Assembly: GCF_037975245.1 (NCBI RefSeq) | Contig: NC_092574.1 | Coordinates: 18,877,713 to 18,941,712, forward strand | Reading direction: 5' to 3' | Source of the DNA: Apostichopus japonicus | Taxonomy: Eukaryota; Echinodermata; Holothuroidea; Aspidochirotida; Stichopodidae | DNA: 64,000 bases | Shown: positions 30,001 to 62,857 of the stretch, in pieces | Numbering within the stretch: the first letter of the stretch is position 1 | How the letters are laid out: each line of letters begins with the position of its first letter | Position numbers and translations under genes: made by a program | The notes under the pieces: model-generated | The model's database searches: none | Told to the model about the DNA's origin: nothing | Seen by the model: only the letters and a program-made list of their open reading frames with translations

Positions 30001-33000
30001 AATTGATATGAAATAAATTTACTTCAGGGTTTGCTGGCTGGTGTGACATTTAATGTAAAGGTACATGCAACAGGAACTCAAATTTAACAATACAACAATA
30101 GGAGCCCGTAGTGATTATCGTTGTCATGAGAATCAAAGTATGTTGATCATGTGAAAGCACTCACAAGCATTGCTCAGACACACCCTGCATGAACTTACAG
30201 ATCACAGGTACTAAGAGATTGACTAGTTCCATGATTCCAGTTGTGCAGTTTAGCCAAACGTCAAACATGAGTTAAGTCGCTTCGAACAAGTAGTTTGACT
30301 TGAAAATATGTTTCAAAGACCTCTACTTCAATAACTACTATTATGAATGAAATGTATATCCTGCTTGTGATCAACTCATAGTACCCCTAATGATCACTTG
30401 TCAATTTACGCGGAACTATTGATTTTAGGCGTGGCAAGAGAGCTGCATTGTTAATTAACCTTTCCTTAATTAGCTCAAGTAATTGCAACAAGAATGACTC
30501 ACCAACTTTTCTATCTCTATGTAACACAATCATTTGAATTGGCTCACTGAATATTATGCCAGTGAAAAATACCTCAAGTACACAGTATTAGTAAAAGTTT
30601 TCACACTTTCTCACACTGTTTTTTTTTTGTCTTGTGCCATTTTTATCCCTTAGATGCCGAATTGGATTCCAAACCTCTGATTCTTCTCCTGGGTCCGTGG
30701 AGTGGAGGTAAAACCAGCATTATCAATTACTTTGTGGGAGCAGACAAATCTCAGCAATTGCTAACAGGTATACGTATGTTACAACCCCTTTAAACTACTG
30801 AATATTTAAATTTGACTCTCTACAATGTTGACATATACTTGTTGTTGCTGTTGTTGTTGTTATAACTGAGGAGCAGCGGTTCCTAGCCCTGCATAACCGG
30901 CTGTTAATCACATCATGCAACACTGAACTTCTGCAGTGACGGTGGTTTCTTATATTTCTATATATTCATTGGTGATCTTAGATACACTGTTCTTACATGA
31001 TACTATCAGGCAACCTGTGGGTCTTCTTCTGATTGAATTACAGTAGGTGCGGGTATGTGTCTATTAGGTGTAGTCTCCCAATCCACCCTAACTACCGTGG
31101 CATACTCAAGATTGTTTCACTACTGTTAGTATTTTACTACATTTATTACATGCACAGTAGTTACATCCTACCTGACGGTTAGATGTTTTGACTCTTTAAC
31201 TGTATGTGAGTAATGGAGAAAGCATTTTTATTTTCCAAATTCTTTTTGATGGAAAAATGGCATTCCTTAAGGGGGGGGGGTGTCCAGGTAGGGGAGTGGA
31301 ATGTCATTTTGTATGGGGAGGGTGAGAGGAACAATAGGGAAAGTCATGATTGATGATACTTCACAGATGTAATATGAACAGTTTTCTTTACACATGTATG
31401 TATCTTAATTAATTTCTCCCTGAAGGTGCTGAACCTGTCACGTCAGAGTTTACAGTTCTGATGTACGGTGAAGAATACCGTAAGGTCGAGGGACTCGTCC
31501 TTGCCACGGACAGCCATAAACCCTTCGCCAGTTTAGAAAAATATGGCAAAGGCTTCATGGAGCACTTCACTGGCATCCAGTTCCCGTCCAAAATTCTTGA
31601 AAAACTGACGTTTATAGACACACCGGGAATTATAGAGAACCGGAAACAGCAAGAGAGGGGCTACCCCTTCAACGAGGTCTGTGATTGGTTCATCCAAAGA
31701 GCTGATCTCATACTCGTGGTATTCGATCCGACGAAACTTGACATCGGTACCGAGCTGGAAAGCATCTTTGACAGATTAAAGGGCCACGAGTCTCAGATAA
31801 GAATCATCTTCAACAAGGCAGATAACATCAGACCACAACAGCTGATGCGAGTCTATGGGGCTCTCTTCTGGAGTCTTGCACCCCTCATACAGGTCACTGA
31901 GCCACCAAAGGTCTATGTGGGGTCTTTCTGGGATAAACAGTTTAAACCAGGAACATACGAAGAACTATTCTTGGAGGAAGAAAAAGCACTTCTGACCGAT
32001 ATCAATAACGTGATCAAAAACAGTATGGAGCACAAAGTTGCGGCTATGAGAAAGAGGGCCATCTCTGGTCGCATACATGCCTTGCTCCTGGACCGGTATT
32101 TAAGGGCCTGGAATGACAACAAGCCTAGTAGACTATTTGGAGGAGAAAAAGAAGTTTGGAAAGAGATCCTACTGCATCCTGAAAATTACGACGTGATACA
32201 ATCCGTTCGGTCTCATCCAAACGTTAGCGGGTACGACATTCCAGATGCGACTGTTTACCAAAAGTTTTTTGAAATTCACGATATAAATTCTTTCGCGCCC
32301 TTGACCAGTCAATGTTCATTCTTACGAGGATGTTTATTAGATAAGATGGAAGATGCCATTTTTGACAAGTTACCCAGATTGTTATCTTCCATCAAGCAGA
32401 AGCCGGATCAAATTTGTGCTGCAAGTGGGATATGTTCGGATACCACAGGACACAACAAGTGGTCCAAACCTTAATACTGGCTGAAATTTAGGGCTTAGAA
32501 ATACTTTAGTTCATAACTATAATAACTTGTCAACTTAATTATAATTAACTTAACTTAATTATAGTTAAGTTAACTCATTTATAGTTAATTAAGTTAAGTT
32601 TAAAGCTGCAATATAGTTACAGTCAACTTATTATAGTTTTAAATTAACTTAATTATAGTTAACTTGTTAAAACATTATTTAAAGGATGACCTTAGGCATA
32701 AAATTAATCTTAATATGTTGTAGGCTACCAAAAAAGAAAAACAGGAAAAGAAAACAGGAAAACACTATAACCAGTTCATTCGGGTTGTTCTCCTAGATAC
32801 TACTTTTACCTTTCCGAGATATGTTCCTTTAAACATCTTAGGCTCATCTATTGAAGTGGATGAACTTCTTAGTTTAATACACAGACCACTATATCAGTTC
32901 CTCATAAGAAACATAAAAGTCATTAGAAAGAAACATGTTAGCAAATGTGTCACAATTCTGTCAGAAACAAATGATTTTGAACGTTAACCCAGGGTATAGT

Positions 33001-36000: not shown

Positions 36001-39000
36001 TAACCAGAAAAGGAAACACATACTGTGAAAGTCATTCCTTAATAAAAAGTTTTAATAATTTTTTGAGACTGATATGTTGTTACTACCTTTCTTTCATTTG
36101 GATTTAGCCTGTATAACTGGTGTCAAAACAACTAGCTTTAAGATACAAAGTTGCTACAGCTGTGGGTGGGTCAATTTGGGTGCCAAGTGAATAATTTTTG
36201 GTGTGACATGCTAAGGCCTCATCAGAGTTCAAGAAAAATATAAGATTTACCTTACTAATTAATTGTTTTGTTTGGATTATTATCCAAAGTTATGCTTACC
36301 ATAGCGCTTTGAAAAGTTATTTTGAATGCTTTCTTTGCCTACCAACATGCCAGAGTGACAGGTGGTGATGAGGGGGGAGGGGGGGGTGAAGGGTTCATGT
36401 CCACAGGCACCTTTCACATAGCTGCCAATGATGACATGCTAATCAACTTATCAAAAACTTCTAAGCTTTACACAATTGCGGTATTCCCAAAACATAAATT
36501 TTGTTGTTATTCTGTAGCTTGATCAAGAGGTGGAAACTTACTATTGGTTCAACTTCCTTGAGCATTTCGTAAGCCGTATCATCGTAGTCTAGCTTGCATG
36601 CCATCTGGAGGTCGTGTGCTGCACTCTCCCAATTGCCCAGTAATCTATGGGCTTTACCCCTCCACTTGTAACCCTGAGCAGAGTCAGGGTTGAGTTTTAT
36701 TGCTCTGTCACAGTCCCTGATGGCAGCATTAGGTTTCTTCTGTTTGATGTAGATACTGTATGAGTAGTAAACAGAAGACAACACAATCTTGTACACATTT
36801 GGTGACAACACTCCATTAAGGAAATTCAGTAGAGTAACTAACTTTATATTTCATAAAGGTAATGTGGGGGGTTCATTTACCAGTAAGGACTGAAGGAATA
36901 CTGGAATAGTACTTGTGTAAGTTCTTGTGAGTTTGTCAGTGCAATAATATAAAACTGTGTGAAATTTCACAAATTTGTTTGCTAACATCAAGGTTGGCAG
37001 AAATGTCTACGTAAAACTTGTAACTGTAATAATAATCATAAAAATAAATAGTCAGTCGTTATTTTTACGACGCTTAAGCAACTACAAATGTGGGAGAAAC
37101 CGGCAAGGGCTTATGTATTACAACTTACACTTCAGGTGGCTTCCAATTCAGCATTTTAACTAAAATTTGGAATCTTTTCAATTTAGAAAGTCACTTCAGA
37201 TGAGAAAACTATAGATTGCTTTTTGGAGGAAAAACCAACTTGCTATGACCCAGCACAACCAGAAAATTTGGTCTTCCGCTAAAGTGTAGCAAAATAACAA
37301 GGAATTACCGATATGTTAACTGCAGAAGATTTGGTGGATAGAACACTAACTTTGGCAAGTAAAACCTCCATTTGGGTGGATCATAGGCCTACAACTATCT
37401 CCAAAGTGACAGGAGGTCTACTACAATTTATCATTTTACCCATGAGGGAGTATTTAGTTACAACAAAGTTACTATGCAATCTGAACTTGATCTACACAAC
37501 CAGCCATCCGACATACTACCTCCAAAGCAGATTTTGGTTGCCCAAACAGAAATTTGGTCACCTCGGATGATCCGCCAACCGTTAGGGCTTTGCCTGTATT
37601 AATTTAACTGAATCACTTAGAATTGAGGACCAAATGACATAAATGTTTGTTCGTTGTCTGTAAGGGTCTGAGCTTAATAACAGATGTTTCGTTCACACAC
37701 CTAGATACCTTACATCGTAATAATCATTTCTCACCTGGCACGCTTTGCATATAATAATGCCGAATGTGGATTTATTTTAATAGCATCTGTGAAAAGTCCC
37801 ACAGCTTCTTCAAGATTTCCATCGCTCATAGCAACCATCGCTTCTGATCTCTTGGCATTTGCTTGCTCCATCATATCATCTGTTACTTCCATTGTGTCAT
37901 CTCCCATTGGTTGAGGTTCATCTGTGTCACCCTCAATCACACCATCCATTTGAATTTCTGAGCAGAAAAAAAAAAAAAATCATGATATGCAATGCTAGAT
38001 TTTTCTATTAACATTATGAATGCATCTAGGCCTGTTTTATATCACCAAAACTAGTGAAATTATTGGCACAAAGTAAAAAAGATCTGGTAAAAAAGAGATA
38101 ACATGGGTTCCTCAAATGTAATCTTACATCCTATTATCTTTAAACCTTATCATGCCTAATATTGTGTTTTCTGGTGGTACTCTTGTAGGCTTAAGTAATA
38201 GAGATTGCTAGTTGTACCTATCATTCAAGTACAGAGATTAGTGTTGCACCTATAATCAACATGCATCCTCTGTATTGGCCGATATCAGTGACATGGGTCT
38301 GATATCATTATTGGTAAAATTTGCTCATCAAAAGTTTCTTCAATAGTGTTACGGGATAAATATTGTTTGGCCTTTCAAAACACTAGTAAATAGAGAATAT
38401 TCTGTTGACAGCAGCAACACTGACAGCAGTCCACTTCCCAACAAAACAACAGTCAAATTGTACTTATAAATTGGATCAAATTAAAAGCAATTATTGATCT
38501 TCCCATAAGTTTCACTTTCACAGAACCTTCCTTGCGATTTCCATTGACATGGAATGACCTTTGATCTCTACAGGCACAACAGAATTCGTGAACTCCCTAG
38601 GGTGGATGTGCAACGTTTCAAAGTCATACAGGCTTCAGTTTTTTTTTGCTTATTGTGTTGATGAGATTATTCAGACTGTAACATACATATGGACCTAAAA
38701 TGACCTCTGACCTCATTTCCATAGCATGATCATGCTTTGAACAAGTGTACACACAGACTTACCTAGATCACTCTCCTCACTTTCAGGTTCAGGTTCGGGT
38801 TCAGGTTTAGGTTCAGGTTTCTGTTCCTCTTTGCTGGAACCAGCAGTGGTAGAATCTGCCTTTTGGCTAGTATCCTATTAAGAAACAAGAAAATCATTTC
38901 ATTTCCTTTTAAATGACCATCAAAATGTTTAAGTACAAACTTGAAAGGTGAAAAAAAAATATTATTTTGCTATTTATCAATAATTATTATCTTATGGAAG

Positions 39001-46994: not shown

Positions 46995-48420
46995 ATTTTG
47001 TCAAACTTTGTTTGTTTTTTTTAATTTTTTATTGCCCTAAGTATGTAAACATTAAACAAGGATAAAGAATCAATACACCACAGAAAATTAATACAAAATA
47101 TGGTGAACTCTGACTTTATGATTAAATTAAATATACACAAGGGAGCCAGTATTCCTCCCAAATAATCTCAGTCATATTTCTTCCGAAAAATCTACTTTTG
47201 TATTTTAAAGTAATTCATGAAGTAATTACTGCTGTCGTTCACTAAATAAATGCCTCTAATTTGTTGGCAATTAAAAATATAACATTGTATAAAAATAAGG
47301 ATTAAATTTAGCACCCGAGCAAAATCACCACCGAACGGTTCAATTGAAATATCCAACTATATATTAATATTAGCATAATTACTAAAAATTACTGATATAC
47401 TGATTAAATTAAATACACACAAGGTGTTCAGTATTTCTCCCAAATTTTCTCAGTCGTATTTCTTCCGAAAAATCAAGTTTTGTATTTTAAAGTAATTCAT
47501 TATGTTATTACTGCTGTCGTACACTGAAGAAATGCCTTTAATTTGTTGGCAATTAAAAATATAACATTGTATCAAAATAAGGATTAAATTTAGCACCCGA
47601 GCAAAATCACCACCGAACGGTTCAATTGAAATATCCAACTTTATATTAATATTAGCATAATTACTAAAAATTGTATAAAAATAATTCCAAATCCTTTGGG
47701 CAAAATCACAATGCCATAATTAATTCTGAATAGTCTCAGAATATATGAACCAGACAGAATGTACACATTTTATGTAAATATTGGTTGGTTAAAATGATTC
47801 TATAGAAATATGGTACTTAAACCAGTGAATGTATAAACGTCGCTGGAAGAGTGGAAACTGGAACCACACAGTACAAAGTCCAGTCTGTGCTTGAAATACT
47901 TAGAGACGACTAACATGGACGATATAAAAACTGAAGCAACTGCTTGTAAAAAAATTTACATTCGAAATTGTTTCCACGTATAACCGGGACTATACGTAAA
48001 TGCAGTGTCAGTAACCTGAGCTGCAAAAATTTAGCTGAAGTAATTAGGTTATAGTATTAAAAAATGGTATTTTATGAAATACTGCTTGAGGAAGTGAGCA
48101 AAAGAAAGAAAACTTCCATTATCACCAAGCAGATTATTAACAAAAAGAAGCCCAAATTTCGATAATTGATGGGACGTTTGGCGATCTGCAAGACAATATT
48201 ATTCCATATTGGCAAACAACCAAATAAAGAGCTGCCAGGGAGTGAGGAATTGACAAAATAATTCAAATAAAGGTTGACAGAATTGAAAACATCCTTCCAG
48301 AAAGGATACCGTACACACAAACTTGCTATGAAAGTCGTTAACAATTATGGTATATTTCATGAAGAGTAGTACGTACTAGCAGGGATATTGTCTGGTTTCC
48401 GAGCAACCTTTGAAATATAG
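46995..48420 (-). mobile_element. Decayed, 5'-truncated LINE of the L1/Tx1 type
   Basis: Minus-strand frames keep the C-terminal part of an ORF2 protein. In order: YPFWKDVFNSVNLYLNYFVN, LPIWNN...KRPINYRNLG, then after a frameshift FVNNLLGDNGSFLSFAHFLK. Further on come the zinc-knuckle remnant CTFCLVHIF followed by a frameshift and LWHCDFAQRIWNYF, and finally MNYFKIQNLIFRKKYD at the stop (about 47450). This order is characteristic of Tx1/L1-like elements. AATAAA and an A-rich tail end it near 47000. Multiple frameshifts and stops show it is dead. Confidence 0.7.
47120..47672. repeat. Tandem duplication of the LINE 3' end (two 271-bp units)
   Basis: Units 47120-47390 and 47402-47672 are highly similar (scattered substitutions) and separated by 11 bp. 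Both cover the last ORF2 codons (from DISIEPFGGDFARVLN on) and the start of the 3' UTR of the minus-strand LINE. Confidence 0.85.
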
Positions 48421-48828: not shown

Positions 48829-50196
48829 CTAGTAGTCATTGTAATAGTCGTCACAATCATTATCACACCAATCAAAACTGACAATCACCACGCTGTCCGT
48901 CTTACGACCAATCGGCAGGAATAAAGACACGTCACGATCGTTGAGTGAACCATTGCACGCAAAGCAATCTTCACCAATGAATTGTCCCAGGCATGAAAGA
49001 ACATTGCTTTTATCATCGTATTCAATTTCGCAATCGTTCATATTCAATTCTAGTTCATGACTTACGATATACACAAACGAAGAGAAGACGTTGAGTAATG
49101 TTTTGATTCCCTTTGGACGCAGTCCTGGTCTTCGTATTTCTAGTAATGGGATATGTAATGAAGGAATAACTTCAACACCGATAAGGTAATTGTCAGGAAT
49201 ATTACTTGCATCTTCCATAAGTCCCTCGTAAGCCGACGGACGCAGAAAGATACGGTCAATACGATAACATGATTGGTCTTCAGCTCTTTTCAAAAAGCGC
49301 AGTGTTCGGTTGGCGAACCGTTTCATTTTCTCGAGATATCTAACAACCTTCGGAATGAGAAGGTTGTTAAAGGGATTCGTGGGGTCCATTAAATATGGAG
49401 CTTCTTGCAGGAAATCAGAAGGAATCATTTCCTCTCGGTAGTACCATTCCCAAAAGGCTTTTTGTTCGCTAATTTTTCTAACCATGAAAAGAAATTTGCG
49501 GAATCCCTCTAAGATGTTTTGTCCACATTCTAAATCTGCGGTCTGGTCGGCAGCTCTAACTGCAAGCAATTCTATAATATAGGAGCGCCCACGACAGTAG
49601 CCTTCGATCGGAACAGTCATTACCCAATATTTGGCGAGCCGACAAAGCGCGTGAGTGAACGAATCTTGTGATTTTAAAAAATCTACAGCAGCTTCAGACA
49701 AACACGTACTGAAGTCGTCCGGTCTCAGATTAGGATGAAATGATAAGTACCTCAACGTGTTCTCAACTTGAACCTTGGCAACGTCATCCCTTTTACTTCG
49801 GTGTGGGATGAAATTCGTTGCAGGTAGCAAGTCGACATGAAACTCTTTGTATTTGAACTTAATCCCATGATTAGTAGCGAAGTAATTCTGACCATACTCT
49901 GACCTCACCAAGTCTTCCAATTTGTTGATGACGTCATAGAAAGGAGGTGTGACGCTATTAAAATAAATAACAATATCGATATCCATCTTAATCCACAATG
50001 ACGTTTTCTTGCCGATGCTACCCAATAATTCAATGCGATTGATTGTAGGACCGTCCTCAAAATATTCTTCTAGATCCCTTCTAATCTGATCAGTATACTT
50101 TTGGACTCTCTTTCGAGTTTGTTGACTTGGAGCAAGTCCATCTGCAACTTCTCTCAGTCTAGCCGGTAAAGACATCACTGATAACCCTCTATTCAT
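48829..50196 (-). CDS. 2'-5'-oligoadenylate synthetase-like nucleotidyltransferase, copy 1
   Basis: OAS enzymes make 2'-5'-linked oligoadenylates from ATP, classically when double-stranded RNA binds. The single open frame has 455 codons from the first ATG. The likelier start is M8 (50175, MSLPARL; 448 aa), because it aligns with the start of the 58.2-kb copy and a splice acceptor (TTATCAG) lies two bases before it. From M1: the nucleotidyltransferase loop LGS 58-60 with KKT 63-65; catalytic Asp72 and Asp74 in KMDIDIVIYF; third Asp122 in FHVDLLPA, the OAS signature; SYIIELLAVRAA about 205-216; and the OAS C-domain motif LMDPTNPFNNLL 269-280. All catalytic residues are present. It ends in an acidic tail (CDNDCDDYYNDY). 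No signal peptide or membrane segment is seen. A cGAS-like receptor is the main alternative, but DLLPA and DPTNP favour OAS. Product and activator in an invertebrate are unproven. Confidence 0.88.
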   Translation of the reverse strand: MNRGLSVMSLPARLREVADGLAPSQQTRKRVQKYTDQIRRDLEEYFEDGPTINRIELLGSIGKKTSLWIKMDIDIVIYFNSVTPPFYDVINKLEDLVRSEYGQNYFATNHGIKFKYKEFHVDLLPATNFIPHRSKRDDVAKVQVENTLRYLSFHPNLRPDDFSTCLSEAAVDFLKSQDSFTHALCRLAKYWVMTVPIEGYCRGRSYIIELLAVRAADQTADLECGQNILEGFRKFLFMVRKISEQKAFWEWYYREEMIPSDFLQEAPYLMDPTNPFNNLLIPKVVRYLEKMKRFANRTLRFLKRAEDQSCYRIDRIFLRPSAYEGLMEDASNIPDNYLIGVEVIPSLHIPLLEIRRPGLRPKGIKTLLNVFSSFVYIVSHELELNMNDCEIEYDDKSNVLSCLGQFIGEDCFACNGSLNDRDVSLFLPIGRKTDSVVIVSFDWCDNDCDDYYNDY

Positions 50197-53113
50197 TTTA
50201 AAAGAAAGAAAAAAGTAATGTCGTAATGTATGTTACGTAATACATTAAAATGTATGCATAGTCTACATGCTGAAAATTGTTACGACAGAAATATCGACCT
50301 TTGAGATCATCACGGGTGGATCCATTATGCGGCGTTGCAACCCGAGGGTAGAGTCTATATGGTGTTATGAACAGGAAAATATAAGTGTTAGTTGAACTTA
50401 CACCACGAAGACTTGATAGGTAATGCAGCGTTAATAATTTCTTTCAATTGACTTTTTGTCTGAGATTGAAGGAGGGAGGTGGGTGTACACTAATCTTACT
50501 CCCACCTCAATTTCGGGATCACCCGACTATTCCGGGAAGTAATAGGAAGCGCACAAAGAATAAAGCATGAAATATATATTCCACAATGTATAGACATGTT
50601 GAACCTACGCAGCTTGCGATGACTCAACTACTGTGCTACTATACTGCCTGTGGTATATATAGCTCACGTGATCTGTGAGTGTATGTAGTTCTCCAAAAAT
50701 GCGGTTAGTTAATATTATATAGGCATATACAGTATTATGCGTATCTATATTCAACTATATTTGAACTATACTGTTCAAGCAGGGAGAATGTTACCGAGGT
50801 GTAATATCTTTGTGTGTGTTTCATCCTCCTTTTGCTAATTGCAATTGAGAAGGTTATTTCGCCCACTTAAGTTCATAAAACACATAAGACGCTCGCATGC
50901 GGGAACGTGAGCCTAGGGAATAATCCTGGCTATAAATACTGGTTAAATTATGGTATATGCAAACTGTGACAATATCACAAATATTTGGATATGGATTGAA
51001 TGCAAATTCAAGTTTACTGGAAAGCTTAGAATGTGTTCCTCTTTCATAACTCAAATATTATTTTTTAACATGGATGATCCGGCTTTAGAGTATGATATAC
51101 TATTACATACACTTTACTATGCTATTACATACCATTATACGACAAAATATGAGGGGGGGGGGACCTATGAAGAAGGAGGTGGGGAAGAAAGTAGGATATG
51201 AATTTTGACAAATAAACGGGAAGTTTAATGCTAATTTAAATATGATATTATACTTCGGCAACAATCAAGGAACCTGCATCAGTGTCGCCACAAATGCTCG
51301 TCTCTGCAAATGTACTTGGCACCTATTGTGCTTTCCTCGCTTCACCTCACAACCCCCCCCCCCCCTCACCAACCTCCAACCACCCACCCTCTTCCCTCCT
51401 CTATTATTCCTCTATTCTTGATGAGCCTATAGTCATACCGTCATGCAGAGACGAAATATCTTTGATACATATGAAAGTATAACAATAATCATTACAGAAC
51501 ATACCTTAGCATAGCTGTAATATATATACCTTGAGCCTTTTAACCTCTCCCGCCCTCCCCTTCCAACCCTCACCCTCACCGCAACCCCCTCCACCTTTCT
51601 CTGTCTACCTACCCCTCACTCCACCCCTCTCTCTCTCCACCTCTCTCTCTCTCTCCACCCCACTTGACCAACCTTAAAGTTCAGCAATCTCTGACAGAAG
51701 AGTTACTCCATTGGTAAGCTTGATTGCGAGCAGAATTTAACAAGAAGTAGATATTCGTTCCGTGCACATATATACGTTTGTTATGCTGACGTGTTGTTAT
51801 CACAGCAAACGCAACTTAAAAATCCCCACCAATCCAAATATTTCGCAATGTTGTTCAGATACTCCAAATAACGGCCATTATGCATATTAAAATGTTTTAA
51901 GATTTCTGTTGAAGGAGGCTGGGAATTCATGTGCTTAATTTGGGTTCATGGATGTAGATGTGGAAAGGAAAGGAAACAAAGTGCTTTCATTAATTCCATC
52001 CCTAAAAGGCGTAGGACTAGTGGCGTGAGTCAAACGGGAGGGCAGCGAGGCGGGGGGGGGGGGGGGGGGGTTTAGCGGCGCCCCATTCGACCATCAGTCG
52101 GGAGAAATGGTTCAGTCAGGGAAAGAACTGGACCATTACTACCCTATTTTTCCATCTCACACAACGTATTTATTAGCAAACCCCGGAGTTTCTTTGCCTG
52201 ATTTATTAGACATAAATATGTCAGGGGTGTCTGAGGTTCCTTCCTCCCCCACACCCACACTCACCCTCGCACCCCCCCCCCCCACAACGATGCATTCTGA
52301 GGCTTATTTCTACTACAAATTAGCCTATAGTTGGATCTAACCACAAGGTTATGCTAATAAAAAGTCGGATGGTTAGTCTAACCCCCCACCCCCCACCTTG
52401 GCCCGGCCTGAATATAAAAACCCCGACTGCCGATGGAGGAGAGGGAAATTACCTCCATACCCCCATTTCCATTTGCGCATGCTACTGCATGGATGTATGT
52501 ATTCTTATTCTAGGACTGGTCAACTAATGCAAACACACGCAAATATCACAGTTACATATAAACGTGCTCAAATGTTTATTGAAACTAACAACTGATAGGG
52601 TTTTCTTTCAATATCTCCAGTTTCGCTTCACTGATATTTTCCTTAACTTCATCTCATCATAAGTCAGCGGAGATTTCGAAGGCACTTTAAGCAAGGCTGA
52701 AGGTAGTGGACGATCCAGACTATAATAATAACTTTCCATAACGTTTTGTTTAGGTTCATGCCCCTACCTAAGTCAAGTCGGTGAAACTAAAAACCTGCCC
52801 CCCCCCCGTCACATATCAAATCATGGGCGCGCCACTGTAGATTATATAGCTAACTTAACTACATACACGGCGCATGCTCCTTTCAAATGCAAGACAACAC
52901 AGAGAGTCATTTTAGTTTAGCTATATCTCTTTTCTGAGAATAATATCAAGCCTACGTCAAAATGACAATTATGCAAGAGTATAGCGAAAAAATTTATACA
53001 TGTATGCAGTGTAACAAATTTCACGAGTATTTTCATTTAACGTTATCTTTTCCGAAACATATATGAAAGTTTCGTTCAGTAATATTTGTTTGTTTTTAGG
53101 CCTATGAACTCAC
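50197..53113. other. Upstream region of OAS-like copy 1; C-rich low-complexity DNA
   Basis: It probably contains the non-coding 5' exon and promoter of copy 1, which cannot be located by eye. It also has an 11-base C run (51353-51363), CT/CCA-rich microsatellite sequence (51540-51660) and a 19-base G run (52052-52070). CAGTGGCG-like ends near 52020 and 52835 (TAGTGGCG / CGCCACTG) may bound another hAT-like element without a matching duplication. Confidence 0.45.
50530..50538. promoter_or_regulatory. Palindromic TTCCGGGAA (STAT/GAS-like site)
   Basis: A perfect TTCN3GAA palindrome about 340 bp upstream of OAS-like copy 1. It fits a STAT element, but a single match to a short consensus is weak evidence. 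Confidence 0.25.
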
Positions 53114-53269
53114 CAGTGATGGTCCAGATCATAAAATCTTGAAGATGATAACGTTGGTTGGAGTAGTCGTGGACCAATATACACTACGCTTTTACACCTG
53201 TCACAGTTGTCTAACAATATAATGGTAGTATTCACATTTGGCTTACTGATTCGTTGAATGCGGTTATTC
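53114..53269 (-). CDS. Candidate orphan exon of unknown gene
   Basis: A 156-bp open stretch on the minus strand has a plausible acceptor (pyrimidine-rich, then TGTAG) and a strong donor (CACTG|GTGAGT). It reads NNRIQRISKPNVNTTIILLD, then DNCDRCKSVVYIGPRLLQ and SSSRFYDLDHHW. I do not recognise the family. It cannot be a coding 5' exon of OAS-like copy 1, because joining it to that acceptor puts the OAS frame out of phase. It may be chance. Confidence 0.25.
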
Positions 53270-53883
53270 CTACAGTACATCACCTCACGCATGGGAGAAA
53301 TAATAACAAGAGAAAAATCAATGCACATAAGTGAGTAATATGATATATTATGGGGATAAACTTATGTTTTATTTTTATTATTTGAACAAGGTACAATGAC
53401 TGGGAATTCCCTGTGTTAAATTAAGATATGACCTTTGACTGATTCATCGTCAGTGTTTGCAAACAGAAATCAAGGATTCCCATTACGTGATTAAACGTCA
53501 TTACATCACAGAGGGAAATTCCAACATTGACATTATTGCGAAATTACTCTGTTTGTACAGAGGCTTGCAAAATCGAGTATGAGTTAAAAATAGCACACAC
53601 TTCTGTACTAACCGCGTGTGTCGATCCTTATTTTAACACTGCATTTGTACTGCAAATACTGGCATCGAAGCATCGTGGTATGATATAGATTTGCTAGATA
53701 TTCGTATCATACTGTTAACTGTAAATCACACTCACGGTCAGCCTGTACGGTCAACCTGTATAACAAAAACAGAGATGAGCAGACGAGTCGATCAGCTTGG
53801 GTCGCATTTGTGTACCGCTCAGTGGTTATAATTAATCAATAACCAATCAATTAAATATTCAATAATCAGGGAGAACATTTAAA

Positions 53884-53945
53884 GACGCTTAAGCTCCCAC
53901 GAATGTGGGAGAAGCCCGCAAGAGATTATGGTTTACAACTTTCAC
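53884..53945 (+). repeat. 62-bp interspersed repeat, copy 2
   Basis: Second copy of the sequence at 37069-37130. A possible element end CAGGGGCGTAAATCATGGG follows within a few bases. Confidence 0.6.
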
Positions 53946-55769
53946 GTCCAGGGGCGTAAATCATGGGACACCCCCCCCCCTCCGCGCTTTATGAAGGGTG
54001 AAGGACACAATATCAAATGTCCCCCAGGTTTATTGACCGACTCGTGTAGGCGCTTTGCTATCAGGCTCATAATGACTCTTGTATTTCATAAAGGGAGCTC
54101 AAATATTGTGCTACGTACTTGAGACTTGTAACTGTTAATGTTTTATTCTCATCTGATCAGCACCCCGACGAGAAACAGAACTTTTCACCTGGGTTGGATT
54201 AAGACATGATTACGGAATACATTTATGGCGTAAATTAACTGAGGAAACGCTCCCATACACCGCTGAGGCTATCTGCTAAGCCACCAGATAAAACCCACAG
54301 CATTCGCTAACCTCCTATCCGGTATATTATTTTTCATATTTTATAGTATGTTGCATTTCACGTATACAAGCAATATAACACTATGAGTAACTTATACTGT
54401 ATGCAATATATAATATGGTTAGCACCCATGATAGTTTTTAAGTGTTTTTGAGATAATTATATATTTCAGTGGAGTTTTAAGACATACATATATGGTGCTA
54501 AGCCCGGGTGCTAAGCTGCTATTCATGTTGTTGTTATAACCATGTTACCCACTATACCTCAAGTTCTAATTTAGTAGTTATGTACATATTATGTTATGTA
54601 CACATGGCACTAGTCTGCATAGCGATCACTTGAGAACGTAATTTCAATGTTACCATTGGCCAGTAACCAATCGAGCAGGAAACTGCAGTAAATAATATAA
54701 ACGTAACTGGTTTCACCGGTTTCAATTAATACATATGTGTTGCTACGTAAGGTCGGTGCATGTCTTAATTGTTCGTTGAATGGGAAAGGGAGAGAGGGAA
54801 GGGGAGTATTCGATCTATACGCTATTTGGGCAGGGTGCCCGGGATTAAGCTTGGTCAGGTTTCTATATGAGAATATACGTATGTACTAAATGTGTAATTA
54901 TAGTTTCAGGTCAGATAAAGTGATATCAACACTAGCTTTAGCACCACCCTACCAAGCTTACCCTTCCCCTAGCCCCTCCCCCCCCCAATTTCTGACATAT
55001 ATGGGACATTGTCGCCCGTTATTAATGCATTACACTTATATAAATTATAACATAATTTCGTGCAATTTGGCATTGATATTTATTGAGGCAGCGGAGATAC
55101 GTTACCGAGTGAGATTGTCAATTCTCAGTACAGGAAATCATAACTCTTCTGCACTGACGTCTATTTAAATGAACCATTGGTATCTCCCTAACCTTCTAAA
55201 TTATTCTTATCAAAGAAAATTTCCATATGGTGATTATAATAATTACAATTCAGCGTGTACTGTATGCCTTACACGTTGGCATGAGGGTTTTTGAAAGTTT
55301 GATATGATTCCCCTGTTAGGAATATGTTGTTGCGTCCATTGTTACTTGAACAACTTGTGTAAAGCGCCCTATTTATAAGATACCTTCTTATTTTAGCATA
55401 TTGTGCAATCATGACTGTGTCTTGACTGTTGCGCTAATTGAAAACATTGAAATGAAAATTTTACATGACGTGTTGTTCACGTTTCAATTATGTTAACGGC
55501 TGTTTAGTTTCCAACGAATCTTTGTACTGTTTTGTACAGGGTCAATGCCAACGACAAAGTTTTGCAGTGGCGACGTATTCTTGTGGCTGGTAATCTCCGA
55601 CCCTATAAAGCCCAGTCCCGAAGCTGCTGTTGTATTGTAGTACATTCCTCCCCACTGGTGGATCCCGCTCTTCTGTTGCCGCCTGCTACATTGCTGCACG
55701 AAAATACAGAGGGAGGAAGCGAAACTCAAAGAACATCGGCAAGACCACTCTCTAAAATTGGCTAACTGA
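53946..55769. other. Intergenic, no gene seen
   Basis: AT-rich DNA with short C runs (near 53969 and 54980). A 77-codon plus-strand frame at 55532-55765 has no known motif and starts without support, so it is not called. Confidence 0.55.
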
Positions 55770-56140
55770 CTTGAATTAATTCATTTATTTGTTTTATCGC
55801 CAATTGTGTACAAAGGGAAAGGAAGTCTCCTAAAAAGTCATAAAAGACTTAACAAGGTAGGAGACTCCCTGGGAGAAAAGAAAAGAAAAATGAACAAATA
55901 TTTATAATACAGAATATACGCAATGATTAAATATACAGTAATAATATCCTAGTGACGCTGAGATGGATACGTGAAAAGATTAAATATTACTAGTACGAGT
56001 TAATGAACTCCTTTTTCAAATGCCTGGTGAATGTGGGTTTTGAAGTAATGAACTTCAAATTTTTTGATAAATCATTCCAAATTTGTATTGCTCTGTTTCG
56101 AAGACCGAATTTCCCTATGTTACTATGGTAAAAATTGCAA
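55770..56140 (-). mobile_element. 5'-truncated non-LTR retrotransposon, 3' end
   Basis: A minus-strand frame (about 56140-55996) reads FYHSNIGKFGLRNRAIQIWN, then DLSKNLKFITSKPTFTRHLK and KEFINSY before TAG. The IQIWNDL...TRHLK pattern is the usual C-terminus of Jockey/CR1/Rex-like reverse transcriptases. A 3' UTR follows with inverted GGAGTCTCC / GGAGACT motifs and ends at an AATAAA-containing tail near 55775. Only the last 50 or so codons remain. Confidence 0.65.
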
Positions 56141-56188
56141 TGAGCGATTTGCAATGAGCAATTGCAATGAGCAATTGCAATGAATTGA
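56135..56188. repeat. GCAATGA/GCAATTG short tandem repeat
   Basis: Several near-copies of TTGCAATGAGCAA lie at the 5' edge of the LINE fragment. Confidence 0.7.
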
Positions 56189-58207
56189 CTTTATTCATGA
56201 TTGGAATTATTCTTACGTCATTAAACGGTTATGTTCTTCACTTTATTTTGTCTTTTAGACAGCACTGTGTACGTGTGCCTTACTTAAACGAAGACTCTCG
56301 TAGATCTTGGTTTTTCCTTTAGACACAACCTGATTCTTGAAGCTTAATCATGATTTTCGGTCTTTTATTCCATCGTTATTAATCATACATTAAGAAAAAT
56401 GACGAGATTTAATTAGATATCATGAATGGATATTAATCCTTACTAATCAGATGATATAAGGAACACGATTGGACTGAATAAGATATCATATATGGATATT
56501 GATCACGTGAACTCTATAACTGGATTCAATAAACATAATATCCAGTATAGGATTATGAACTGCTCGGATCGGTTTCTTATCTGCTGGTATTGGAAGCAAA
56601 TTGTTGAAACAATAGGTGTCATATGCCAACAAAGATGAGAAATGTTGACATGCCATGTATACTTAATTGATGTGAACTTCGTTGTTTAGGTGTCGTTCTT
56701 TGTTTGGTTACTGTAATTCAATGTAAATTGACTCAATGACATTGTTGTCTCACGCATCAAGTTTCAACAAAAGACAAGTTCTTTTCATAAGTCATTTGGA
56801 AATACCCAGTTGCTAAAGAAATTGTTAGTGCAAAGTGCGAAGTTAAATGATAGCAATGAGTTAAATGATAGCAAGCAAAACACACCGCTGTCTATGTATC
56901 TGCCAATAATACCTCTATTCATCAAACAAAATGTTTAATTAGCTTGTTTTGTTCAATATCTGGCTACAGGGCTGCAAAAGGAGAGCATGATATAAAATAA
57001 TGCTTTTGTCATTTTGATTCAAGTTATGCACAACTTATGAATAGGGAAGCAATATCTAATAATTTTGCAGTGAGCTTCTTCAAATGTTCAAAGATTAGTC
57101 ATAAAGATTTCCCATTCATGGTGTGAACATCGTAGAACTGCTACCTCATAAACATAGATCTAGACCCCTGTTGGTTGGTGACCCTAACTTTAACTTTGAT
57201 AATCCTTGGGACCTTCCACCCCCCCCCCCCCAAAGGGGTTGATGTTTTAGTCTGGAGAAGGGGCAACCCGGCCCCTCCTATTTAAACATTAATATATATT
57301 TAAAAGTTTTTATTTACAGAAAACGGTGTAATATTTTGCAACTTTTGAGCTAATTATGTTGAATTTTTTGTCCATATCACCTCATCAAATTGGGCCAAAT
57401 ATATCTCTAACAGCCTACGAAGGAGAGGGTGGGCGAAAACAATGGCCGTACCGCACCACTTAGACAATGAAGTACGACGCCCTCCTCCGCTTACGCCGTC
57501 CCACCCGCCCCCTTTCTTCTCTTTCTCTCTCTCTTTCTACAAACGGAAAACAGAAGATCACATTATGACAACGAACTGTCTAGCTGCATCATTAATTTTA
57601 AAAATTTAGGCATAAATATTATAATGCAGTACTTAATTTATCACACAATTAACACATGCGCCCGAAGCTAAAGGTAAACAAACTTGAACCTGTAAATTAA
57701 CTGAAAATGCCATCAAAATGTAGCAGGAATGGTCGATGTTGCCCTTCTATATATCCATCCCGAGTTACCACTAACAGGAGTTTGTTCGAGTTATTAGTTC
57801 ATCACTTTGTATTAACTTGTACAATATGCACGATAATTTCACACTTGACGTGTTTTTAAGCAATATATGCATGAAGGATACGAAAACTTATATACTGTTC
57901 TAATATACGTTGTGGAAGTACCCTTTCACTTGCTAAAAATCAATAATAAACCAAACATCAATTTTCTTGCAGGTTGCCCAAGCAATGTACGACGTCGTAG
58001 GAGTGAACTTACACAATACGTCGACTCTTTAGTAGGTTAGATTATAACTATTTGAAGTTAGACATATCAGGAAGCAGAAGCATGATTCTGTATCTATCTC
58101 TATCAGACAAAATGCTTGCTGTTTATATTACTTTGTATTTACTTGAAAGATGAAAAAGCGCAGGTTACATGGCATATGAAAACATATCTTCAAGTTCCAA
58201 ATGACCT
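56189..58207. other. Intergenic between LINE fragment and OAS-like copy 2
   Basis: No coding sequence recognised. Includes a long C run near 57221-57234 and a CT-rich stretch at 57500-57540. Confidence 0.55.
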
Positions 58208-59527
58208 TTAAACCCAGTTGCAACTGATTTTAATGACGTCAGTCGCATCTTTGCCAATGGGAATCGTGAAAGTCGTGTGTCTGTCCTCATGTCGTTCACT
58301 CGTTGGTGTCCACGTGCCAGGGTCTATGAACTGCTCGAGCGCCGACTGGACCCTTTTTACAATATCTTCTCGCTGCCCAAAGCCCCTGTCTCCGTCGATT
58401 TTAGCAGCTGCTGCCACGATGTCAGTAAATGAAAAGAGATAGCTCGAAGCAATACTCGGATCTACTCCTCTTGCTCCAGATCGCTTCTCGATCTTCGGCC
58501 GTAAGAGCCGCTTTCGTTCGGTGCCTACCAAGAAATGTTGAGGTGTCTTGACTTTTGGAGATTTAAACATAACCCTCCACGTTGGTTGAGGCTCGAATAT
58601 CATCTTAAGACTGAAGCCCCCGTTTCTCTCTGACTTGTCTAATCGGGATAAAGTCTCTGTCGCGTATGTACTCATTTGCCTCAGGTTATCACCAAGAGCT
58701 CCTTGTAACATGTTGTTATACGGGTTGGTAGGGTCAAGCAGCAGTGGACGCTGGTGTAAAATGTCCGCTGGGATGTCGGTCCTTCGATAGTATCTTGTCC
58801 AAACTATGTTTAAGTTGTGCGACTGTTTTACCATCGTCAGGAATCGACGAAACCCTTGCAGGATATCCCTACTTCCACGACGTTCCTCTTCCTCAGCAGC
58901 CCATGCACCAAGGTACTCCATGATAGAGGAGCGACCAAAGGAAAATCCAGGAATCCCAATTGTGGTACTCCAAAACTTGGCGAGCCTCGACAAGGAATGG
59001 GAAAATGCTGAATGATTTCGCTCGAAAGCTACTGCTCCTTCGGACAGTGACGTGCTGAAATCCATATGGTTTCCTCGTCTGTTGTTCCTCAGATGTTGCA
59101 GCGTGTTGGCAACCTGCACGCCTATCTCATCAGTTTCCCCAGAGTAGCCGTTTGAATACAAGAAGTTTCTAGCAGGTAACAAATCCACGTCGAATCCTTT
59201 CACGGTCAGAGACAACCCCAGAGGACTCTGTTTGCAATCTTCATCAATATTCATGGTTATGACGTCATCAAGCTTTTGCTTGAATTTACTAAACGGTGGC
59301 ATCTCGTCATTGAGATAAATGATGACATCGATATCCATTTTGAACCAGAGTGATGTCTTTTTGGTCAAGCTACCGAGTGGTCGAATACGATCGATGGAGA
59401 ACTTAGATCCCAAGTGTCGATGTAAAACATCTTGGATGTGTTTCGTGGCTGCTCCTGCTTTCTCCAAGATATCAGAGGACGGAGCTAGTGAATCAGCGTA
59501 CTGCTTAAGTTGAATGCTCAAAGACAT
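58208..59527 (-). CDS. 2'-5'-oligoadenylate synthetase-like nucleotidyltransferase, copy 2
   Basis: An intact 439-codon frame starting at ATG 59527 (MSLSIQLKQY). The open frame runs 12 codons further up without an ATG, through a polypyrimidine tract and an acceptor (CAAACAG) two bases before this ATG, so the start is well supported. Motifs: LGS 51-53 with KKT 56-58; catalytic Asp65 and Asp67 in KMDIDVIIYL; third Asp115 in GFDVDLLPAR; DFSTSLSEGAVAFE and SHSLSRLAKFW; SSIMEYLGAWAAEEEE about 200-215; and the OAS C-domain motif LLLDPTNPYNNML from residue 242. The full triad and both OAS domains are present, so it is predicted to be catalytically competent, cytosolic or nuclear. It is the closest relative of the pseudogene at 62 kb and a more distant paralogue of copy 1. 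An ISRE-like GAAACTGAAA lies about 190 bp upstream. Whether dsRNA is the activator cannot be told from sequence. Confidence 0.9.
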   Translation of the reverse strand: MSLSIQLKQYADSLAPSSDILEKAGAATKHIQDVLHRHLGSKFSIDRIRPLGSLTKKTSLWFKMDIDVIIYLNDEMPPFSKFKQKLDDVITMNIDEDCKQSPLGLSLTVKGFDVDLLPARNFLYSNGYSGETDEIGVQVANTLQHLRNNRRGNHMDFSTSLSEGAVAFERNHSAFSHSLSRLAKFWSTTIGIPGFSFGRSSIMEYLGAWAAEEEERRGSRDILQGFRRFLTMVKQSHNLNIVWTRYYRRTDIPADILHQRPLLLDPTNPYNNMLQGALGDNLRQMSTYATETLSRLDKSERNGGFSLKMIFEPQPTWRVMFKSPKVKTPQHFLVGTERKRLLRPKIEKRSGARGVDPSIASSYLFSFTDIVAAAAKIDGDRGFGQREDIVKRVQSALEQFIDPGTWTPTSERHEDRHTTFTIPIGKDATDVIKISCNWV

Positions 59528-59718
59528 ATCTGTTTGATACGAAAACAAAAATAAAGCAAACAATAAATCAATCGTAAATTTAATACTTTGCCAAGACTCC
59601 CATCGATCTTACAGGGTCTATAGATATTTCTCTATTATTCATACTATGGAAGGAAACATTCATGACAGAGAAAAGAAGCACAATATTAATAACTTCAAAA
59701 CCTGTCAATCATATGTTT

Positions 59719-59728
59719 GAAACTGAAA
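59719..59728 (+). promoter_or_regulatory. ISRE-like GAAACTGAAA upstream of OAS-like copy 2
   Basis: An exact match to the IRF-binding core GAAANNGAAA about 190 bp upstream of the copy 2 ATG. If the acceptor next to the ATG is used, this lies in the first intron. Such matches arise by chance about once in tens of kilobases in AT-rich DNA. Confidence 0.3.
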
Positions 59729-62013
59729 AGTGTTATAGGCCTACATGCAGTCTTTTAAATTGTGATAGAAAAGGTAGAGTTTCACATAAATATCCCAGAT
59801 TGAAATTATTTTTCGGCCTCTAGCGTTGATCGTATTCTTTTTTTTTTACACTTTCAGATCCTACAGTTTCAACAAATTCAACTCTGATTAATAAAGAAAA
59901 ATATCAGTATTTAAATAGTGATGAAAAACGACATGAACACTCGTTCCATGACAAAGCCTTGAGGGAATGCTTTAGTTTGATCGATTATCATGTTATTTGA
60001 TGAATATTGAAAAAGTGCCGAAAATACACTACACGTGTTAAGCTTTTTTCCTTGAAATTTATGTTTACAAAGGTTTCCATCGCAAACATGACTATCGGGT
60101 ACCAAACGTGAAGTATGTCTGTACTCGTATGCATGCTTGCATGTACTCGCTCTCGTCCAAAATTTGTACTCATACTACCGACAATAAATAAATTTATTAT
60201 AAATGCTTGTGCGAAATTAAGTTCCCCGATTTGTACTCTGACTGACGAATTGCTCTCGTAAACAGAGTATTCATCCAGTTTCGATTGCCTGTGGTAGATG
60301 CATATGACAGACATGAACTAAATAAATTAAGAATAAAGTAAGTCAACTTACCGAGTTCAATCTTTAATTATCACGTCCGAATAATTTTCAGGTAAAAGGA
60401 AAATTCCTCTCCAATTTCTCGTGTCCCTTTAAATGGTTGTTTTACTGGGGGTAAGAATTTATCGTTTATGTTATTCGATACAACCCAATTGCTTGCCAAA
60501 GAACCAATGACGATATTCTCACCGAACTCTCTTAATTAATAGTCATATATTTGATTACATCACGCGAAGATTATCATTGTCTCATCCATAGCAAATAACA
60601 AAGAAACGAACAGGGACTGTACGCATTGCGACACTCTGGGAATACCCAATTTTGAAATCGCACTGCATGTGCAAAGTTCAATCATTTAATTTGTGAATAA
60701 CTGCAGACATAATGTTTTCTATAAACAGTCGACCGAAAGACTGCCACCCTTCGACGGGACCGTTGCCTATGCTTCGGGAAGGTATGTAATTAAAACAAGT
60801 TTGAAAATACACATTTGAAGCCGTTAAATTCGTCATTTTCATACAATCTTCTGCATAGTGATCTAACTGATCAAATATGACATGACAATTGCACAATGGT
60901 ATAACGACCTATCAGCTTAACAGAGAAGTCTTTTCCTTTGATGAAAACCATGTTTGTGTATGTTTGTGTATATATCATTTTTGAGGTTTCCTCCAAATAT
61001 TTCTCAGTTTATACTAAATAGGCAGGACGACTCTTATGTTCAGCACAATATTTGACATGCATATAGACCATTTTGAAGGTTATGACAAAGTTTAGCAAAA
61101 ATAGACTTGAAAAGAATTTACATTTAAAAGATCTGCATTACAGGGTGAAAAATTATAGTCTGATACGTACACAGTAGATGTTTGTTCATGTTTCTTGTAC
61201 ACGTCTTTAAACATGTCCATGTTCCTCAGAAGTTGAGAAGTTTGTTGAAATACTAAGAAAGATTGCAAATAAAATGTGCATTTCATCTTGAAGGGAAAAA
61301 AGACATCCAAATAATGGATTTTGTGGAGCAGAATGTTCAGATGATCCATTTTGCTCGAAAGTTTTGAGGTAACGTTTTGGTTTTCGCCTTCAAAAAATGT
61401 CCCACCGCCCAATGGAAGTTTGTGCATCCCGTCCCCTTCTCTCTAGAATGAGGCCTCTAAAAGCGCTTCTGGTTTAGTCAACCGCATACATCATCTTTGT
61501 TGAAATAAGTATATGCTAAAATCAATTAATAAAACACAATGTACTGTTATTTATTAGTCCAAGGCAGGTTTATTTTGACGGACAAGAATGCAAATCGAGA
61601 TATCCACATATCATGTTAGCAATGTATGACAAGCTTCACCAAATAATTTCGCATATAAAATCAATGGCGGAATTTAACACAAACTAAATACACAAACGAA
61701 AGAAACCTAAAAATAACCAATTACTGGAAACTTCAGTATGCAAAGTTCAGTGATAGCAAAAATAACTGATAAATTGTCTTTGTCTGTCAAGAATGATAAG
61801 GAGGTTAAACAAACTCTGCTTAACATCCCACTGACAGAGATCATTATAACAACATGCTTGGGGATGTGGATTCAAAGAAGGACAACGACTCAAGACAATA
61901 AATGAGTCATATGTTCAGGTATCTGTCAACCCACCACACCGCAAAACACGACACCATCCCTCAGGCAGAAGTTCGTTCAGAGTTCGTTTAGCAAAGTGAC
62001 TCAACAGGTGGTA
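59728..62013. other. Between OAS-like copy 2 and the pseudogene
   Basis: It should hold the 5' exon and promoter of copy 2. A 111-codon minus-strand frame at 61092-61427 and a 72-codon one at 60678-60896 have no recognised motif; neither is called. The lost 3' end of the pseudogene was not found here. Confidence 0.5.
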
Positions 62014-62857
62014 TTAGTCTTGTGAAACTCCTTGGAAGAAGTTATCATGCGGATTAGAATGGTCGAGCAGTAGTGGTCTCTGCTTCATTATTTTCTGTGC
62101 AATGTCGGCTATAGAGTATGAAATCATCCCAATAGACGCAAATACTATGTTAAGGAATCTTCTAAACGCGTTGAGAAGATCCTGACTTCCATGAGACTCT
62201 TCATTTTCCGCAGCATGTGCTCCGAGGTATTCCATGATTGAGGATTTTCCTTTCAAATTGAATGGATGTTGATTTCCCCAGTACTTTGCCGCTAAGCGAG
62301 ATGATAGCGTGTGAAAAGGCACTGTGTTTCTTTTCAAACGCAACCGCACACTTCGAGACAGAAGTACTGAAGTCCCGTTTCTTTTCTACGTTTGGACCTG
62401 CAATGTGTTTCGAATAATAAAGGACATTTGGCAGTTGGTTTTCCGCCACTGTGTTACCTTCTCTGACGTATTCATTGACCATATTCACTGTTGAGATTAC
62501 ATCAACGTCAACCCCGTTCGCTTTTAGCTTAAAGGCATGCGAACCCTCTAAAACGCTACTGTACGATCTTCCCAACGCGTTCACTATTCTTCTCTTAGCG
62601 TTTGTAAATGGAGGCATTTCATCGTTTAAGAAAACATGTTACATGTAAATCTACATCCATCTTTAATCCAAGAGAAGTTTTCTTGGCATAACTTCCCAGA
62701 GGTACTACGCGGGCAACAGAGAGACCATGCGTGTCTTGAAGCACACGTTGTATCATATCAGTTGCTTGACCAGCTTTGTCGAACATATCTTGGTTTGGCG
62801 CCAAGCCGTCCGCAAACTTACGTAAATACTTGCTCAATGATATGATGATCGGAACAT
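62014..62857 (-). pseudogene. OAS-like pseudogene, copy 3
   Basis: A broken paralogue of copy 2. The GS loop region (LGSYAKKTSLGLKMDVDL), the third-Asp region (GVDVDVI), DFSTSVSKCAVAFEKKHSAF and SSIMEYLGAHAAENEE and RPLLLDHSNPHDNFFQG are all recognisable, but in three frames. Breaks: the ATG after a conserved acceptor (62857-62855) is followed by about 14 extra bases that push it out of frame into TGA. A 7-base tandem duplication (ACATGTA/ACATGTT near 62630-62643) shifts the frame right after the catalytic DVD. A further small indel lies near 62305. A short deletion precedes RPLLLD, and a stop at 62014 removes the C-terminal third. The DPTNP motif has drifted to DHSNP. No coding use is likely. 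Confidence 0.88.

What the first reader, a model, noticed from the sequence alone, without database searches (positions are those of the whole stretch)
48829..62857. Tandem cluster of invertebrate OAS-like genes with single-exon coding regions
Three same-strand paralogues within 14 kb, two intact and one dead. Vertebrate OAS coding regions are split over five or more exons; here the whole two-domain protein lies in one exon. In both intact copies the AG of an acceptor sits exactly two bases before the ATG, so each seems to have a spliced non-coding leader. All three catalytic aspartates, the GS loop, the DLLPA motif and the C-domain DPTNP motif are kept. This is a local birth-and-death family of nucleotide second-messenger enzymes in what is probably an echinoderm.
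Basis: partly seen in the sequence, partly recalled or inferred. Interest (0 to 1): 0.75.

Follow-up and report, generated by a model that had tools for sequence, protein, structure and literature searches.

The report
Echinoderm OAS-like enzyme gene array
A probable echinoderm genome carries a tandem array of genes related to the antiviral enzyme OAS, nearly all with an intact active site, but the RNase L partner through which OAS acts in mammals was not detected, so the animal may use an as yet unidentified signalling route.

Summary
The genes are real. Window 48829-50175(-) and 58208-59527(-) each hold one uninterrupted two-domain OAS-superfamily protein; 61969-62843(-) is a dead third type. 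They are the edge of a 67-kb array of types A, B and C: ten open genes, one dead C and one 5' remnant of an A gene. Relatives lie on C1 (four type D, one broken), C20 (E) and 2.6 Mb away on C14 (F, catalytic residues lost). The mitochondrial code suggests an echinoderm. Comparison with solved proteins puts the core nearer OAS1/OAS2 than bacterial CdnC; the tree is unresolved. Catalytic motifs are intact in 14 of 15 open genes. Best reading: OAS-superfamily nucleotidyltransferases making an oligonucleotide signal for an unidentified receptor. Known kind, new variant. Part of the copy number could be an assembly artefact.

The parts
48829..50175 (-). A1: OAS-like gene, 448 aa, single open frame, intact catalytic residues
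49816..50175 (-). A1 nucleotidyltransferase domain (Pfam SMODS, 36.6 bits, cut-off 26.5)
49357..49728 (-). A1 OAS1_C domain (44.8 bits, cut-off 19.9)
48832..49278 (-). A1 C-terminal domain without assigned fold
   Evidence: aligned with the B1 domain that was modelled
50189..50190 (-). best-scoring AG upstream of the A1 ATG (candidate acceptor, weak)
   Evidence: top 13% of AGs
58208..59527 (-). B1: OAS-like gene, 439 aa, single open frame, intact catalytic residues
59171..59527 (-). B1 nucleotidyltransferase domain (Pfam SMODS 17.0 bits, under the cut-off of 26.5)
58697..59101 (-). B1 OAS1_C domain (45.6 bits, cut-off 19.9)
58211..58621 (-). B1 C-terminal domain without assigned fold
59530..59531 (-). 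candidate splice acceptor AG two bases before the B1 ATG, behind a T-rich tract
   Evidence: top 2.6% of AGs; same in B2-B4
61969..62843 (-). dead type-C copy (start codon lost, indels, stops)

Best explanation
Types A to E are OAS-superfamily nucleotidyltransferases (N-lobe nucleotidyltransferase, C-lobe OAS1_C); types A, B and C have multiplied by segmental tandem duplication, with loss of copies. Shown: the domains, the intact catalytic triad and triphosphate-site residues, the OAS1-like predicted fold of B1, the array structure. Inferred: each enzyme is switched on by a ligand (viral or stress nucleic acid is the likeliest), joins ATP into a short oligonucleotide, and that messenger acts on a receptor other than RNase L, since the only KEN-domain locus detected in this genome is IRE1. 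The extra C-terminal domain of types A, B and D, which type C lacks, is my guess for the place of ligand or partner recognition.
For: OAS1_C matches in 13 of 13 aligned members and SMODS in 11 of 13 at E up to 1; OAS1_C is over its cut-off in 12 of 12 proteins scanned one by one, SMODS in 8 of 12. The family profile gives OAS2 127.7, OAS1 87.0, CdnC 49.9 bits. AlphaFold2 model of B1: mean pLDDT 76.7, pTM 0.79, the best of five (the others 61-68); VIA-align Z 19.4 to human OAS1 (3.7 A over 279) against 17.1 to CdnC (3.8 A over 275). GS, three Asp and the K213 equivalent kept in 12 of 13, R210 equivalent in 13 of 13; A4 and B2, not in that alignment, keep the motifs too. Array structure. dN/dS of 0.35-0.52 in all B, C and D pairs. 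Ribonuc_2-5A matches one locus (two exons), whose 70-aa piece matches IRE1 alone in PDB (16 of 16 sequences).
Against: No expression or enzyme data. The tree does not resolve whether the echinoderm group is nearer vertebrate OAS or CdnC. Poly(A) polymerase (Z 18.3) is nearly tied with the lower OAS1 rows in the fold comparison. dN/dS among A2-A4 is 0.71-1.01 (bootstrap for A2/A3 0.49-1.16), which also fits relaxed constraint. A search of G000 is exon by exon and may miss a divergent RNase L. E and F sit on long branches.
Confidence: 0.6

Rival explanations
1. They work as vertebrate OAS do: dsRNA binds a basic groove, 2-5A is made, an RNase L-like nuclease is activated.
For: Fold and catalytic residues; the K199 equivalent is K or R in 12 of 13, the K66 equivalent K or R in 13 of 13. 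An RNase L homologue is listed among genes detected in a cnidarian's poly(I:C) response (PMC8476169, passage), so RNase L-like genes are not confined to vertebrates.
Against: The R195 equivalent is V or I in 13 of 13 and the K60 equivalent P, L or V in 13 of 13; only IRE1 found with a KEN domain. A sponge OAS is reported not to need dsRNA (title seen in reference lists).
Confidence: 0.2
2. A bacterial clade-C CBASS cyclase acquired separately by an echinoderm ancestor, which would explain the lack of coding introns.
For: CBASS_cyclase_a matches both lobes of A1 at 56.2 bits; SMODS is over its cut-off in 8 of 12 proteins; DID, RLAK.W and DP.NP.NN motifs look like CdnC rather than vertebrate OAS.
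Against: Score far under the model's cut-off of 200; OAS1 and OAS2 score higher than CdnC. The family profile matches 5 of 1084 bacterial genomes of three phyla, best 35.8 bits; this is weak evidence, as it also missed the CdnC that G004 is known to hold. The shared motifs may be ancestral, as OAS is reported to branch within bacterial clade C (PMC10732462, section 7, part 1 of 2).
Confidence: 0.12
3. Much of the recent copy number is two haplotypes of a shorter array placed head to tail in the assembly.
For: Units 2 and 4 are 96.9% identical over 11.1 kb, and part of unit 1 matches unit 3 at 93.1% over 4.4 kb; echinoderms are often highly heterozygous (recalled).
Against: The rest of unit 1 is no nearer unit 3 (90.0% over 5.7 kb) than unit 4 (91.3%); gene content differs (C dead or missing in units 1-2, intact in 3-4; an A1-type remnant beside A3 only); no direct repeat of 300 nt or more joins the outer flanks in the 75 kb compared, though one 381-base inverted match does.
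Confidence: 0.2
4. OASL-like non-catalytic signalling proteins.
For: F at C14:21.63 Mb has lost GS, two aspartates and the K213 equivalent.
Against: 12 of 13 aligned proteins keep the full set.
Confidence: 0.08

Closest known systems
Vertebrate OAS1/OAS2 (2'-5'-oligoadenylate synthetases)
   Same: Two-lobe fold, GS and Asp triad, R210/K213 equivalents, OAS1_C domain
Bacterial CBASS cyclase CdnC (clade C CD-NTase)
   Same: Fold (Z 17.1); DID, RLAK.W and DP.NP.NN motifs
   Different: Profile score 50 against 87 bits for OAS1; far under the CBASS_cyclase_a cut-off; extra C-terminal domain
eSMODS superfamily (PMC10732462)
   Same: SMODS over its cut-off in 8 of 12 proteins scanned one by one
   Different: eSMODS are defined by SMODS as top domain (passage); here OAS1_C has the better E-value in 12 of 12, though in A4 the two tie (47.2 and 47.7 bits)
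cGLR superfamily (cGAS, Mab-21)
   Same: Also animal CD-NTases
   Different: Mab-21 (PF03281) is not among the Pfam matches of the 13 members at E up to 1

Membership tests
OAS superfamily | OAS1_C (PF10421) domain over cut-off | tested here: met
   Over the cut-off of 19.9 in 12 of 12 proteins scanned one by one; 16 matches over it in the genome
OAS superfamily | GS motif and three catalytic aspartates | tested here: met
   12 of 13 aligned, F the exception
OAS superfamily | OAS1-like fold | tested here: met
   B1 model: Z 19.4, 3.7 A over 279 residues to 4ig8; the fold is shared with poly(A) polymerases and others at Z up to 18.3
OAS superfamily | Branches with animal OAS, not with bacterial clade C | tested here: inconclusive
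   Echinoderm group 85/86, base unresolved
2-5A/RNase L system | RNase L in the genome | tested here: inconclusive
   Only KEN locus found is IRE1, but the search can miss exons
2-5A/RNase L system | dsRNA-binding groove residues | tested here: not met
   Of four positions, two fail: R195 equivalent V/I and K60 equivalent P/L/V in 13 of 13; K199 (12 of 13) and K66 (13 of 13) are K/R
2-5A/RNase L system | 2',5'-linked product | not testable with these tools
   needs enzyme assay
CBASS_cyclase_a (NF041116) | Score over curated cut-off 200 | tested here: not met
   best 62.3 bits among 7 proteins scanned
cGLR superfamily | Mab-21 (PF03281) domain | tested here: not met
   not among matches of the 13 members at E up to 1
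eSMODS superfamily | SMODS as top-scoring domain | tested here: not met
   OAS1_C has the better E-value in 12 of 12 proteins; by bits A4 is a near tie in favour of SMODS (47.7 against 47.2)

The most novel reading that the evidence does not exclude
A diversified nucleotide-messenger immune system without RNase L: several OAS-type synthases, three of the types with a C-terminal recognition domain of new fold, each tuned to a different ligand and feeding a messenger receptor not yet known in animals.
Probability: 0.25. Interest if true: 0.75.

Novelty: new variant of a known kind. Interest (0 to 1): 0.42.

Why it matters
OAS is held to be an ancient and widespread eukaryotic CD-NTase (PMC10732462, abstract and part 1 of section 7), and the 2-5A system is said to have been described only in vertebrates although OAS orthologues occur throughout the tree of life (PMC4481073, passage). 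A genome with 14 open genes that keep the catalytic motifs and no RNase L detected is a good place to find what OAS does without RNase L. The recent copies (A2-A4, B1-B4) are ready material for enzyme and ligand assays.

Tried and rejected
Bacterial relatives: tblastn of C1 and A1 against 72,556 plasmid records at E 0.01 gave no match; pattern scans with the family alignment found no relative in genome contigs or viral contigs. C-terminal domain: AlphaFold2 on the B1 domain alone gave mean pLDDT 68.0 and pTM 0.65; Foldseek found no PDB match with E of 0.001 or less (best 0.048), VIA-align best Z 4.3 (an outer dynein arm-Shulin complex chain, then dynein light chains), under the Z of 8 that the tool warns about; left unassigned. 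Remnants of this domain were sought 1.3-1.5 kb downstream of C1, C2 and the dead C; no match better than E 1. SAVED receptor: no match in G000, but no control rang either, so no conclusion. Tree: the tool warns that the CdnC rows and the distant bacterial row may attract each other, so the base is left open. Rfam: nothing in the window at gathering thresholds. Polyadenylation signals (AATAAA or ATTAAA): none within 800 nt for A1 and B1-B4, found for A2-A4, C1, C2; not pursued. dN/dS near 1 in A2-A4 was considered as positive selection; the bootstrap interval for A2/A3 spans 0.49-1.16, so only noted. A simple doubling of a two-unit block was considered; it fits units 2 and 4 but only part of units 1 and 3. 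Literature: seven answered searches, each showing a capped list of 12-20 papers; in those lists I saw no paper on an echinoderm OAS array, which does not show that none exists. Kjaer 2009 and Pari 2014 were seen only as reference titles. Papers opened: PMC10732462 (abstract, part of section 7, one passage); passages only of PMC6307210, PMC8195603, PMC4446440, PMC4420275, PMC6723221, PMC4481073, PMC2852836, PMC8476169.

Full report
What was checked. Pfam gives OAS1_C in both intact proteins over its cut-off, and SMODS over its cut-off in the first only (36.6 and 17.0 bits). The dead copy has lost its start codon (ATA) and carries five indels against C1, at 93.7% identity over 862 nt.

Organism. 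COX1 on contig C35 is one 517-residue frame under codes 4, 5, 9, 13 and 24 alike. Against solved COX1 it scores 923.2 bits under code 9 (echinoderm and flatworm) and 882.4 under code 5 (invertebrate) for the same best chain; the other codes were not scored. COX2 and a second frame that looks like ND4L lie behind it; their names and the claim that this order is usual in echinoderms are recalled. The genome has 671.6 Mb in 35 contigs.

The array. The window ends inside a cluster. In ascending order on C14, on the minus strand throughout: A1, B1, dead C, A2, B2, A3, B3, C1, A4, B4, C2, from 18926541 to 18993228. A 57-residue piece of an A1-type gene (87.7% identical) survives just upstream of A3. 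Outside the array: three open and one broken type D (one TAA) at C1:18.45-18.48 Mb, E at C20:23.75 Mb, F at C14:21.63 Mb. That makes 15 open genes. Within types, nucleotide identity is 92-99% for A2-A4, 94-97% for B, 92% for C and 84-92% for D; A1 against A2-A4 is 63-64%. Units 2 and 4 are 96.9% identical over 11.1 kb. Unit 1 matches unit 3 at 93.1% over 4.4 kb in one part and at 90.0% over 5.7 kb in another; other unit pairs run from 85 to 92% in their long blocks, with weaker short ones. This is a history of repeated duplication and patchwork; part of it could also be haplotypes set side by side, which I could not exclude.

Gene structure. The ten open array copies, the three open D copies and F hold the core in one frame with an ATG before it. 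E has its first in-frame ATG at residue 162, after the GS motif, and an acceptor-like stretch (TTTTCTTTCTTCCTCAG) before its core, so it probably has a coding exon upstream (inference). I scored AG sites with a simple pyrimidine rule of my own against 6902 AGs on the strand: best sites lie at -2 (B, top 2.6%), -10 (A2, A4 top 3.5%; A3 top 0.6%), -17 (C, top 1.8%) and -13 (A1, top 13%).

What family. The profile from ten proteins matches PDB sequences of OAS2 (127.7 bits over two domains), OAS1 (87.0) and CdnC (49.9). With the N-lobe alone the order is not clear: C1 gives OAS2 23.1 and CdnC 22.7 bits, A1 gives CdnC 14.5 and OAS1 14.4. The predicted structure of B1 (best of five models; residues 246-268 low) aligns best with OAS1 (Z 19.4 to 18.4), then poly(A) polymerase (18.3), OAS3, NF45/NF90 and CdnC (17.1); in Foldseek NF90 stands second behind OAS1. 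The fold is shared by a wide superfamily, so fold alone does not prove the family. The bacterial model CBASS_cyclase_a matches six of seven proteins given at 45-62 bits, in one piece over both lobes in four of them, under its cut-off of 200. In 1084 bacterial genomes of three phyla the profile matched five, best 35.8 bits; two of these were genomes already known to hold CdnC, while a third such genome (G004) was missed, so this search is not sensitive. A tree of 21 rows groups the 11 echinoderm proteins given (85/86), with B+C at 87/84 and A at 98/99, and leaves the join with vertebrate OAS and CdnC open. Culbertson and Levin place the OAS superfamily inside bacterial clade C (section 7, part 1 of 2 read); on that view the CdnC-like motifs here are ancestral.

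How it may work. The residue table covers 13 of the 15 open genes (A4 and B2 were not in the alignment). GS, three Asp and the K213 equivalent are kept in 12 of 13, the R210 equivalent in 13; F has lost GS, two aspartates and K213. A4 and B2 keep the same motifs. Position names follow vertebrate OAS1 numbering, which I recalled and matched to the alignments; OASL mutants R45E/K66E/R196E/K200E, K63E and K66E support a role of this groove in dsRNA-dependent function (PMC4446440, passages). Of four positions tested, R195 is V/I and K60 is P/L/V in 13 of 13; K199 is K/R in 12 of 13 and K66 K/R in 13 of 13. K66 is also present in CdnC and so tells little. The vertebrate dsRNA groove is thus only partly kept. 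The Ribonuc_2-5A profile finds one locus, in two exons, and a 70-residue piece of it matches only IRE1 in PDB, 16 of 16 sequences. A STING-like domain gives two equal weak matches (25.5 bits each, 34.8 with frame neighbours) and Mab-21 three matches.

Extra domain. Types A, B and D share a domain of about 137 residues after the OAS core; type C stops before it, and no remnant was seen downstream. Predicted alone it is an alpha/beta domain at mean pLDDT 68.0 (best of five; the others 44-61); no PDB structure matched convincingly. Of five type-B pairs computed, this domain carries 30 of 41, 26 of 42, 26 of 43, 14 of 22 and 9 of 21 replacement differences (B1/B2, B1/B4, B3/B4, B2/B4, B1/B3), but its synonymous rate is also raised, so selection is not shown.

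Selection. dN/dS is 0.35-0.52 for B, C and D pairs, 0.26-0.31 for A1 against the other A copies (dS above 1.2, near saturation), 0.71-1.01 among A2-A4; bootstrap for A2/A3 0.49-1.16. Most types are under constraint; A2-A4 are either relaxed or diversifying.

Verdict. A tandem family of OAS-superfamily enzymes, larger than reported, in a probable echinoderm. OAS genes in invertebrates are known, and their wide spread is stated in papers seen. The array, the extra domain and the undetected RNase L make it a variant worth an assay, not a new kind of system.

Noticed in passing
C14:21629257-21630255 (L017): F, an OAS1_C relative with an open 329-aa frame that has lost GS, two catalytic Asp and the K213 equivalent: a candidate pseudoenzyme.
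   Followed up: partly
L006 1213-2820, L007 6608-8188, L009 7761-9368: A2-A4 are 79-88 residues longer than A1, with a tail ending in a basic stretch, and evolve at dN/dS of 0.71-1.01.
   Followed up: partly
C14:18959564-18959734: 5' remnant of an A1-type gene beside the intact A3: trace of a gene replaced or lost.
   Followed up: no
C19:25345154-25345381 and C19:25353503-25353730: Two equal STING ligand-binding-domain matches, each with one TAA inside the stretch.
   Followed up: no
C29 (31,219-base contig): Five COX1 pieces on one small contig beside the whole COX1 on C35: rearranged mitochondrial copy or nuclear insertion.
   Followed up: no
window 8557-8928(-) and 18823-19155(+): Two inverted frames with closely similar peptides and no Pfam match: an unnamed dispersed repeat.
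   Followed up: no
window 47110-47672: Two head-to-tail copies of a 281-base repeat, 91% identical, about 1.2 kb beyond the 3' end of A1.
   Followed up: no
window 10990-13276(+), 31413-32474(+), 36461-36850(-): Flanking ordinary animal genes: protein kinase exons, a Dynamin_N GTPase, a TPR protein.
   Followed up: no
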